Notes under the pieces: model-generated | Databases searched by the model: none | Told to the model about the DNA's origin: nothing | The model's input: only the letters and a program-made list of their open reading frames with translations | Assembly (NCBI GenBank): GCA_017552165.1 | Contig: JAFZCF010000058.1 | Span: 1 to 20,576, forward strand | DNA length: 20,576 nucleotides | Source: Clostridia bacterium | GTDB lineage: Bacteria; Bacillota_A; Clostridia; Oscillospirales; CAG-272 | Direction: 5' to 3' | Shown here: piece after piece, positions 12,718 through 15,333 of the stretch | Position numbering within the stretch: position 1 is the first letter of the stretch | How the letters are laid out: each line of letters opens with the position of its first letter | Position numbers and translations under genes: made by a program

Positions 12718-14934
12718 TCAGGATTCCTGTTCGACCATTTCGTAGATCTCAAGGACGTCGCCCTCTTTGATATCGTTGAACTTTTCAAGTCCCACGCCGC
12801 ATTCGTATCCCGAAGCGACCTCTTTAACGTCGTCCTTGAATCTGCGGAGAGAACTGATCTTGTCGTCGAAAATGACTACCGAGTCGCGGAGAACGCGGAC
12901 GAGCCCCTTGCGGGAGATTTTGCCGTCCGTGACGTAGCAGCCGGCGATCGTTCCGACGCTGGGAACGTGTATCGTCTGCCTGACGTCCGCGTGGCCGAGG
13001 AGCTGCTCTTTGTAAACGGGAGCAAGCATACCCTTCATGGCCGCTTCGATCTCGTCGATGCACTCGTATATGATCCTGTAAGTGCGGATATCTACCTTCT
13101 GCCTTTCGGCGGCGTCGAGCGCCTGTCTGTCCGGGCGGACGTTGAATCCGACTATTATCGCGTTGGAGGCCGAGGCGAGCATTACGTCGCCCTCTATGAT
13201 ACCGCCGACGGCGCTGTGGATGACTTTAACCTTGACCTCGGGGGTCGAGAGCTTTTCAAGCGACTGCTTGACGGCCTCTGCCGAACCCACGACGTCGGCC
13301 TTGACAACGATTTTGAGCTCTTTTGCGCCCTCGTTTATCTGGGCAAAGAGGTCGTCGAGCGAAACCTTGGAGCCGGCGTTCAGCATTTCGTTGCGCTGCT
13401 TCTCACGCCTCTTGTCGGCGAGCTCGCGCGCCATTCTTTCGTCGGCAACGGCGTTGAACTCATCGCCGGAGGTGGGAACGTCGGAGAGACCGGTGATTTC
13501 GACGGGGACCGAGGGACCCGCCTCGCTGACTGTCCTTCCGGCGTCGTCACGCATGGCTCTCACGCGCCCGACAGCCGTGCCGGCAATGACCGTGTCTCCC
13601 GAACGGAGAGTTCCGTTCTGTACGAGAACGGTGGCGACGGGACCGCGGCCCTTGTCGAGCTTCGCCTCGATGACGATACCCTTGGCGCGCTTGTTCGGAT
13701 TGGCCTTGAGTTCCTTTACTTCCGCAACGATAAGCAGGTTTTCAAGCAGCTTGTCGATGCCTTTTCCGGTCAGAGCGGAGCAGGGAACGCAGATGACGTC
13801 TCCGCCCCATTCCTCGGGAATGAGATCGTATTTCGTGAGCTCCTGCTTGATCCCCTCGGGATTTGCGCCGGGCTTGTCCATTTTATTTATGGCCACGACG
13901 ATATCGAGGTTGGCGGCTTTTGCGTGGTTTATCGCCTCGACGGTCTGCGGCATTATACCGTCGTCGGCCGCGACGACGAGTATCGCAATGTCTGTCGCCA
14001 TTGCGCCGCGCGCCCTCATGGCAGTGAACGCCTCGTGTCCCGGCGTGTCGAGGAAGGTTATCGGCTTGCCGTCGTAAATGACGCGGTAGGCGCCGATCGC
14101 CTGTGTAATGCCTCCGGCCTCGCCGGCCGTGACGTTGGTTTTTCTTATAGAGTCGAGGATCGACGTCTTTCCGTGGTCGACGTGACCCATAACGACGACG
14201 ACGGGGGCGCGGGTGACGAGATTTTCGTCCGAATCCGCTTCCTCCTCGAAAAGTTTTTCCTCAATAGAAACGGATACTTCGTGAACTACCTTTGCGCCGA
14301 GTTCGTCGGCAACGAGATAAGCGGTGTCGAAATCGACAGTCTGGTTGACGCTCGCCATGATACCGAGGAGCATGAGCTTTTTGACGACCTCGGACGCCGT
14401 CGCCTTGAGACGGGTCGCAAGTTCGCCGACCGTTATCTCGTCGGGGATGGAAACCGTGAGCTGAAGTTTTCTCGCCTTTTCAAGCTCCGCCTGTTTCTTT
14501 CGCTCTGCGGCGAGATCTTTCGGCGAGAGACGCCCTTTCTGGGGCTGATTCTTGGCGTTCTGCGGACCCTTTGCCGCCTGACGCGTCTGTACCTGTTTTT
14601 TGCCCTGCTTCTGACGGCTGTCCATACCTCCTCGCGAGCTTTCGGTATCGTATCTGTCGAGTTTTTCGTCATATTTGGAAAGATCGACCGACCCCGCGTG
14701 GGTATCGACCACTCTCGTTTTTCCTATCCGGCTCGTGTCGGTATAAACCGCGGTCCGCGTCTCGGAAGGCAGATGCACCGGCCTTTGCTGCGCCGGCTGC
14801 TGAACGTTTTTCTTTTCCTGTTTTACCGGCTTCTTGGCGCCCTTCTGCTGCTGACTGAAATCCGGTTTGTTTTCGAACCTGTTGGCCGCCTTTTCGCGTG
14901 TGTTCCCGATCTTTTTGTCCTCGAATTTGGGCAT
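12718..14934 (-). CDS. infB: Translation initiation factor IF-2, main part (downstream of an in-frame amber codon)
   Basis: IF-2 is the GTPase that brings initiator tRNA to the 30S subunit and promotes subunit joining. This 738-codon part holds a Gln/Lys-rich disordered linker (about 1-155), the second IF2_N domain (161-217), the G domain with G1 GHVDHGKT (250-257), FLDTPGHEAF (G3) and NKMDKPGANP (G4), then domains II, III and the C-terminal tRNA-binding domain, ending EGDVLEIYEMVEQES. It is complete for the essential functions. The same frame continues upstream through codons AKEEETKPARTVITPA to a TAG at 14985-14983 and then to the N-terminal part at 15333, so the ancestral gene is 12718-15333 (871 codons including the TAG). 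ATG 14934 is the first ATG, GTG or TTG after the amber codon, but it has no clear Shine-Dalgarno; the true start of a separate product is uncertain. Confidence 0.95.
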   Translation of the reverse strand: MPKFEDKKIGNTREKAANRFENKPDFSQQQKGAKKPVKQEKKNVQQPAQQRPVHLPSETRTAVYTDTSRIGKTRVVDTHAGSVDLSKYDEKLDRYDTESSRGGMDSRQKQGKKQVQTRQAAKGPQNAKNQPQKGRLSPKDLAAERKKQAELEKARKLQLTVSIPDEITVGELATRLKATASEVVKKLMLLGIMASVNQTVDFDTAYLVADELGAKVVHEVSVSIEEKLFEEEADSDENLVTRAPVVVVMGHVDHGKTSILDSIRKTNVTAGEAGGITQAIGAYRVIYDGKPITFLDTPGHEAFTAMRARGAMATDIAILVVAADDGIMPQTVEAINHAKAANLDIVVAINKMDKPGANPEGIKQELTKYDLIPEEWGGDVICVPCSALTGKGIDKLLENLLIVAEVKELKANPNKRAKGIVIEAKLDKGRGPVATVLVQNGTLRSGDTVIAGTAVGRVRAMRDDAGRTVSEAGPSVPVEITGLSDVPTSGDEFNAVADERMARELADKRREKQRNEMLNAGSKVSLDDLFAQINEGAKELKIVVKADVVGSAEAVKQSLEKLSTPEVKVKVIHSAVGGIIEGDVMLASASNAIIVGFNVRPDRQALDAAERQKVDIRTYRIIYECIDEIEAAMKGMLAPVYKEQLLGHADVRQTIHVPSVGTIAGCYVTDGKISRKGLVRVLRDSVVIFDDKISSLRRFKDDVKEVASGYECGVGLEKFNDIKEGDVLEIYEMVEQES

Positions 14935-14982
14935 AGCCGGGGTAATGACGGTCCGCGCGGGTTTCGTCTCTTCTTCCTTGGC

Positions 14983-14985
14983 CTA
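14983..14985 (-). other. infB: In-frame TAG codon within infB
   Basis: Codon 117 of the 871-codon infB frame reads TAG in the context GTC TAG GCC AAG. It lies in the low-complexity linker, where Gln, Glu or Lys (CAG, GAG, AAG) would be one base away. All 20 genes in the window end in TGA or TAA, so this is the only in-frame TAG seen. Confidence 0.9.
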
Positions 14986-15333
14986 GACAGCGGCGTCCGC
15001 AGGTTTCTGAATTTCGCTCTTTTCGGGAGCTTTTTCTTCGGGGGCGGGAGCGGTTTCCTGTTTCTGATCGGTGACGGGTTCGACCGGCTTTGCCTCCGGT
15101 TTTTCCTCTTCCTTGAATATGCGGGCAATGCCGTTCAGATAGTCGTCAAAATTGTTCAGCTGGTTACCGAACGTGATGCGATTTATGATAAGACTGTATT
15201 CGTCGTTTTCAATGGCCGACGAAGTCTTTTTGCCGGCAAGGCCGAGCTTTTCGCACAACTCGATAAGATCCTTGCTCTTAATGGACAGATCTTTTGCCAG
15301 CGTATTAACCTTGTATTTCTGATTGTCTATCAT
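14983..15333 (-). CDS. infB: Translation initiation factor IF-2, N-terminal part ending at an in-frame amber codon
   Basis: The 116-residue product starts with the first IF2_N domain (YKVNTLAKDLSIKSKDLIE, about 7-25, to residue 55) and runs into an acidic, proline-rich linker (PEAKPVEPVTDQKQETAPAP and on). This is the normal N-terminus of a Bacillota IF-2. ATG 15333 follows GAGG (15348-15345) by 11 bases and sits 19 bases after the ylxQ stop, its expected place in the operon. Translation meets TAG at 14985-14983, then the same frame stays open to 12718. A single base change (for example CAG to TAG) explains the break without any frameshift. Alone, this fragment has no GTPase or tRNA-binding domain. 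Confidence 0.85.
   Translation of the reverse strand: MIDNQKYKVNTLAKDLSIKSKDLIELCEKLGLAGKKTSSAIENDEYSLIINRITFGNQLNNFDDYLNGIARIFKEEEKPEAKPVEPVTDQKQETAPAPEEKAPEKSEIQKPADAAV

What the first reader, a model, noticed from the sequence alone, without database searches (positions are those of the whole stretch)
14932..15333. Essential infB is interrupted by one in-frame amber codon
The infB frame is continuous from 15333 to 12718 except for TAG at 14985-14983, between the first IF2_N domain and the rest. The frame is identical on both sides, so a single substitution explains it. IF-2 is normally essential, but its N-terminal domain is dispensable in some bacteria, and E. coli makes shorter forms by internal initiation. 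Options are a genuine nonsense mutation with re-initiation at ATG 14934, amber readthrough, a split IF-2, or a sequence error. General TAG reassignment is unlikely, because no other gene here contains or ends in TAG.
Basis: partly seen in the sequence, partly recalled or inferred. Interest (0 to 1): 0.75.

Follow-up and report, generated by a model that had tools for sequence, protein, structure and literature searches.

The report
Private stop codon in infB
One stop codon interrupts the gene for the translation factor IF-2 in this metagenome-like sequence, but a nearly identical relative has a normal amino acid there, so it is most likely a sequence error or at most a mutation private to one strain.

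Summary
The infB frame runs from 15333 to 12718 on the minus strand with a single internal stop, TAG at 14985-14983 (codon 117), in the linker after the first IF2_N domain. The stop looks private to this sequence. A public MAG protein (P0002, "Clostridia bacterium") has the same length, 871 aa, matches 869 of 871 residues and has lysine at 117; the only other difference is at residue 114. Of 103 related loci, 95 could be tested and 0 of these has a stop between the N-terminal domain and the core. A search with the 116-aa piece found no equal. The nearest restart codon, ATG 14934, has an average Shine-Dalgarno match. RNA around the stop is no more folded than shuffles. TAG ends infB in some relatives. 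Best reading: a local sequencing or assembly error (about 0.65). A genuine strain-private nonsense mutation, tolerated because IF-2's N-domain is not strictly essential in E. coli, remains possible (about 0.25). No reads and no genome of this strain were available, so this is not settled. Interest is low.

The parts
14983..15333 (-). First part of the infB frame: 116 codons with the N-terminal IF2_N domain, closed by the internal TAG
   Evidence: Pfam IF2_N at residues 6-50, E 7e-08
14983..14985 (-). Internal amber codon, codon 117, in the linker between the two IF2_N domains
   Evidence: the near-identical protein P0002 has lysine here
12718..14982 (-). Rest of the infB frame in the same frame: linker, second IF2_N, G domain and the later IF-2 domains; ends in TGA
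   Evidence: Pfam hits; the ORF from ATG 14934 matches NCBIfam TIGR00487 IF-2 with 840.2 bits, cutoff 424.4
14932..14934 (-). First ATG after the stop (Met134), possible but poorly supported restart codon
   Evidence: anti-SD duplex -3.0 kcal/mol against a mean of -2.85 inside infB; annotated start -9.0; Met in 2 of 120 aligned proteins, which are the two nearest, P0002 and P0003
14371..14373 (-). Met321, the internal start codon with the best upstream Shine-Dalgarno-like match among the seven examined after the stop, inside the second IF2_N domain
   Evidence: -6.6 kcal/mol, at the 5th percentile of 366 positions inside infB; Met in 112 of 120
16067..17179 (-). nusA upstream in the same cluster, 370 aa, ending with the NusA core model
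   Evidence: NCBIfam TIGR01953 matched over residues 4-366 of 370; neighbours ylxR and rimP by Pfam

Best explanation
The TAG at 14985-14983 is most likely a local base-calling or assembly error in an otherwise ordinary, full-length infB gene of an uncultured bacterium related to Clostridia MAGs. The cell most likely makes a normal 871-residue IF-2 with a sense codon at position 117. Shown: the stop is present in this sequence, and a near-identical copy without it exists. Inferred: that the difference is technical rather than biological.
For: P0002 has the same 871-aa length, matches 869 of 871 residues and has lysine at 117. P0003, 91% identical, is also uninterrupted. Of 103 related loci with the IF-2 core, 95 had the N-domain in frame, each starting at least 189 codons before the core match, and 0 of 95 had a stop between. 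The other 8 gave no N-domain match: 7 had at most 282 codons upstream, and L060 had the full 450. The search with the 116-aa piece gave 1 hit among 46 candidates, a 91-aa protein at 48% identity. The neighbouring YgiQ product differs from its best match P0123 at 2 of 633 residues. At both places the window differs from all three closest copies (P0123, P0124, P0125); one is Glu where they have Gly, and Glu is at that column in 1 of 120 relatives. IF-2 is essential in general (established knowledge), so a fixed nonsense allele is unlikely beforehand.
Against: No reads, coverage or second assembly of this strain could be examined, and no whole genome is held for the window. The other 19 gene models have no internal stop, so the sequence is not grossly error-prone. 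Residue 114, the other difference from P0002, does not mark the window as wrong: Ala, the window's residue, is the commonest there (39 of 120, Ser 7 of 120), and the alignment of this linker is ambiguous (searches place P0003 differently). The closeness of the two differences (chance about 0.03 under a site-rate profile, 0.008 if uniform) is therefore weak support. Leu581 of YgiQ is common in wider relatives (36 of 120). Two differences in each of two proteins also fit ordinary strain variation. Met134 is kept in P0002 and P0003.
Confidence: 0.65

Rival explanations
1. A genuine nonsense mutation private to this strain. The cell lives on a shorter IF-2 that lacks the N-terminal domain, made by internal initiation downstream of the stop (Met134, Met237 or Met321) or by leaky termination.
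For: In E. coli a chromosomal deletion of IF2 Domain I is viable and grows 15 to 41% slower depending on medium, and shorter IF2 isoforms arise from internal starts (PMC12297416, passages). IF2 lacking a third of its residues from the N-terminal end supports viability when in excess (PMC3334882, passages), and the N-terminal domain is called functionally dispensable (PMC2859245, passages). The window NusA is 370 aa and ends with the core model, so the NusA C-terminal contact of IF2 Domain I reported in E. coli may not exist here (inference). Met134 and Met237 are kept in the two nearest relatives.
Against: The near-identical P0002 is intact. ATG 14934 has a Shine-Dalgarno match no better than the average inside infB. 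Met321 has a better one (-6.6 kcal/mol) but lies inside the second IF2_N domain. 115 of 120 relatives aligned keep the N-terminal region. In E. coli, loss of the long form is costly: slower growth, severe sensitivity to a DNA-damaging agent and cold sensitivity.
Confidence: 0.25
2. Programmed or suppressor-mediated readthrough of the amber codon gives full-length IF-2.
For: The frame is conserved on both sides of the stop.
Against: No stable RNA structure around the stop (z-scores +1.21 and +0.82, less stable than the shuffle means). The only tRNA found in the window is tRNA-Trp. The closest relative needs no readthrough. The genome could not be searched for a suppressor tRNA.
Confidence: 0.05
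3. IF-2 is truly split into two cooperating proteins in this lineage.
For: The stop falls between two domain blocks. 5 of 120 listed relatives are short entries without the N-domain; one, P0047 (546 aa), equals the last 546 residues of P0003. I could not see whether these come from contig ends, gene calling or real interruptions.
Against: P0002 and P0003 are single full-length proteins, P0003 being identical to P0047 where they overlap; 0 of 95 testable loci are split; no entry for the separate first piece was found; no ribosome-binding site above background for the second piece at ATG 14934.
Confidence: 0.03
4. TAG is reassigned to an amino acid in this organism.
For: 0 of 20 gene models in the window end in TAG.
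Against: Only one TAG codon stands inside the 20 gene models. Relatives end infB with TAG in 6 of 81 rows that reach a terminal stop; some rows are the same gene fetched twice, among them L006 and L084. Low TAG use is usual in related loci (rough).
Confidence: 0.02

Closest known systems
Bacterial translation initiation factor IF-2 (infB), TIGR00487
   Same: Domain order: two IF2_N domains, G domain and the later IF-2 domains; placed after rimP, nusA and ylxR
   Different: One in-frame TAG in the linker after the first IF2_N domain
E. coli IF2 alpha/beta/gamma isoforms (IF2-1, IF2-2, IF2-3)
   Same: In E. coli, N-terminally shortened IF2 made from internal starts of the same gene can support growth
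   Different: There the shorter forms come beside the full-length form and from known starts; here no comparable start signal was found right after the stop
Spurious stops in draft metagenome assemblies (recalled; literature searches gave listings only, and I read no paper on it)
   Same: A single in-frame stop in an otherwise intact essential gene, absent from the nearest relative
   Different: No reads were available to demonstrate it here

Membership tests
IF-2 (infB), TIGR00487 | Score above the curated cutoff over the GTPase core | tested here: met
   840.2 bits against cutoff 424.4 for the 738-aa piece
IF-2 (infB), TIGR00487 | Single uninterrupted reading frame including the N-terminal IF2_N domain | tested here: not met
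   TAG at codon 117 in this sequence; intact in P0002
Programmed stop-codon readthrough gene | Stop conserved in orthologues with coding on both sides | tested here: not met
   Sense residue in P0002; 0 of 95 testable loci with a stop there
TAG-reassigned genetic code | TAG absent as terminator and frequent inside conserved genes | tested here: inconclusive
   No TAG terminator but only one internal TAG in 20 gene models, window only; TAG ends infB in some relatives; own genome not held
TAG reassignment or amber suppression | tRNA with CUA anticodon in the genome | not testable with these tools
   Only tRNA-Trp found in the window; no genome held
Split IF-2 | Translation signal for the second piece and a conserved split | tested here: not met
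   Average Shine-Dalgarno match at ATG 14934; full-length in P0002 and P0003; 0 of 95 testable loci split

The most novel reading that the evidence does not exclude
A living strain related to Clostridia MAGs carries a real nonsense codon in infB and depends on an IF-2 without its N-terminal domain, or on amber readthrough: a natural test of whether the N-domain is needed in this group.
Probability: 0.25. Interest if true: 0.4.

Novelty: not a real feature. Interest (0 to 1): 0.12.

Why it matters
If real, it would be a natural nonsense allele of an essential translation factor, suggesting that the N-terminal domain is expendable in an uncultured lineage. As an error it is a caution: one stop in one assembly should be checked against the nearest relative before it is read as a split gene or as recoding.

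Tried and rejected
Megablast of plasmid records (with 12600-20576) and of phage records (with 12600-15700) gave no match. Two scans of viral contigs for the DNA around the stop, one exact and one degenerate, found nothing. The window's own genome is not held, so suppressor tRNAs, other internal TAGs and genome-wide stop use could not be examined. The DNA behind P0002 was not reached: the best genome loci are 69 to 80% identical over their aligned part, so silent differences from the closest strain are unknown. A family-wide search matched 255 of 295 genomes at E 1e-250 or better; each printed row reads no stop inside, but the printed list is cut. RNA structure around the stop was no better than shuffles.

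I first took the two close differences from P0002 (residues 114 and 117) as a sign of an error patch in the window. On checking, the window's residue 114 is the commoner one and the linker alignment is ambiguous.

The stop-codon count is rough, because greedy long ORFs include antisense ones. In the window it counted one TAG; the 814-codon antisense ORF over infB ends in TAG and is probably that one. In one search, 83 of 88 loci gave a row. From I dropped L081 to L088: six are genes already held under other numbers, L087 is a second infB-like locus (its frame had no internal stop), and L088 is another GTPase. The remaining 103 loci may still hold the same gene twice.

Full report
Observation. 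On the minus strand the infB frame runs from ATG 15333 to a TGA ending at 12718 and holds exactly one internal stop, TAG at 14985-14983, codon 117 of 872. The first 116 codons encode an IF2_N domain (residues 6-50). The part after the stop holds a second IF2_N domain, the G domain and the later domains of IF-2, and from ATG 14934 it matches the NCBIfam IF-2 model with 840.2 bits against a cutoff of 424.4. Of the 20 gene models that I picked by hand, the other 19 have no internal stop, and 0 of 20 end in TAG.

Surroundings. The gene order on the minus strand is rimP, nusA, ylxR, a small ORF, infB, ygiQ. The small ORF at 15353-15772 had no Pfam hit at 1e-5. That this order is usual is recalled. 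Upstream of ATG 15333 there is a good Shine-Dalgarno match (duplex -9.0 kcal/mol), so the first piece has a normal start.

Relatives. A search of 5.8 billion proteins with the frame read through as X found P0002, an NCBI MAG protein named translation initiation factor IF-2 [Clostridia bacterium]. It is 871 aa, identical at 869 of 871 positions, with lysine at 117 and serine instead of alanine at 114. The next, P0003, is 91% identical and uninterrupted. Of the 120 listed proteins, 115 have the N-terminal region. Five short entries do not: P0047, P0053, P0078, P0087 and P0108. P0047 equals the last 546 residues of P0003, so at least there a short and a full-length entry stand for the same sequence; I could not see why. 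A search with the 116-aa first piece alone found no equal: one hit among 46 candidates, 91 aa at 48% identity. Among 103 related loci that hold the IF-2 core, 95 have the N-domain in frame with no stop between (N-domain start at least 189 codons before the core match). In 8 the N-domain was not found: seven had at most 282 codons upstream, and L060 had the full 450. In a family-wide search 255 of 295 genomes matched, and each printed row reports no stop inside; the printed list is cut.

Error or private mutation. Two readings remain. For an error: the neighbouring YgiQ product differs from its best match P0123 at 2 of 633 residues. At both the window differs from P0123, P0124 and P0125 alike; one is Glu for Gly, with Glu in 1 of 120 relatives, while the other, Leu, is common more widely (36 of 120). 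The two infB differences lie three codons apart, a closeness expected with probability about 0.03 under a site-rate profile from P0002 versus P0003, or 0.008 if uniform. But the window's Ala114 is the commonest residue there (39 of 120 against Ser in 7) and the linker alignment is ambiguous, so this closeness does not mark the window as the wrong copy. P0002 and P0123 come from different listed contigs, so the comparisons may be with different strains. For a real mutation: differences of this number are normal strain variation, and the stop falls where loss is best tolerated. In E. coli, deletion of Domain I slowed growth by 15 to 41% but was viable (PMC12297416, passages seen). IF2 lacking a third of its residues supports viability when in excess, though loss of the long form made cells sensitive to a DNA-damaging agent and to cold (PMC3334882, passages seen). 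I favour error because private nonsense alleles of an essential gene should be rare (inference), but no read data were available.

How it would work if real. Restart at ATG 14934 has a duplex of -3.0 kcal/mol, like the average inside infB (-2.85, s.d. 2.5, 366 positions). Its Met is present in 2 of 120 aligned proteins, which are the two nearest, P0002 and P0003. Met237 has -5.9, but its Shine-Dalgarno-like run ends one base before the start codon (sequence); it too is kept only in P0002 and P0003. Met321 has -6.6 and is Met in 112 of 120, but it lies inside the second IF2_N domain. None is convincing. Readthrough has no structural support (z +1.21 and +0.82), and a suppressor tRNA could not be looked for. 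The E. [quoted passage not shown] The window NusA is 370 aa and ends with the core model, so that contact may be missing here, which would lower the cost of losing the N-domain (inference).

Recoding. One TAG inside 20 gene models, and TAG ending infB in 6 of 81 rows of relatives with a terminal stop (some rows are the same gene twice), give no support to TAG reassignment. The absence of TAG terminators in the window is not unusual for related loci (rough).

Verdict. The stop is in the sequence, but it is most likely an artefact, or at best a strain-private allele. It was not seen in any relative that I could test, and interest is low unless reads confirm it.

Noticed in passing
12967..15411 (+): An 814-codon open frame lies antisense to almost the whole of infB and ends in TAG; it is probably a by-product of codon bias, but it can mislead gene callers and stop-codon counts.
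   Followed up: partly
10811..12712 (-), codons 545 and 581: The YgiQ product differs from its near-identical database match P0123 at two residues, at both also from P0124 and P0125; Glu545 stands where 80 of 120 relatives have Gly.
   Followed up: partly
4458..8410 (-): A lysine cluster by Pfam hits: dapA, dapB, a diaminopimelate dehydrogenase and a decarboxylase of the lysA type, head to tail.
   Followed up: no
8763..8838 (+): A tRNA-Trp gene stands between dapA and an L-serine ammonia-lyase gene.
   Followed up: no
16067..17179 (-): NusA is only 370 aa, ending with the core NusA model, without a C-terminal extension.
   Followed up: no
P0047, no locus held: A 546-aa IF-2 entry identical to the last 546 residues of P0003 begins at an internal Met; its contig is listed at 25504 bases, that of P0003 at 25536. 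It may be another interrupted or mis-called infB in a sister species.
   Followed up: partly
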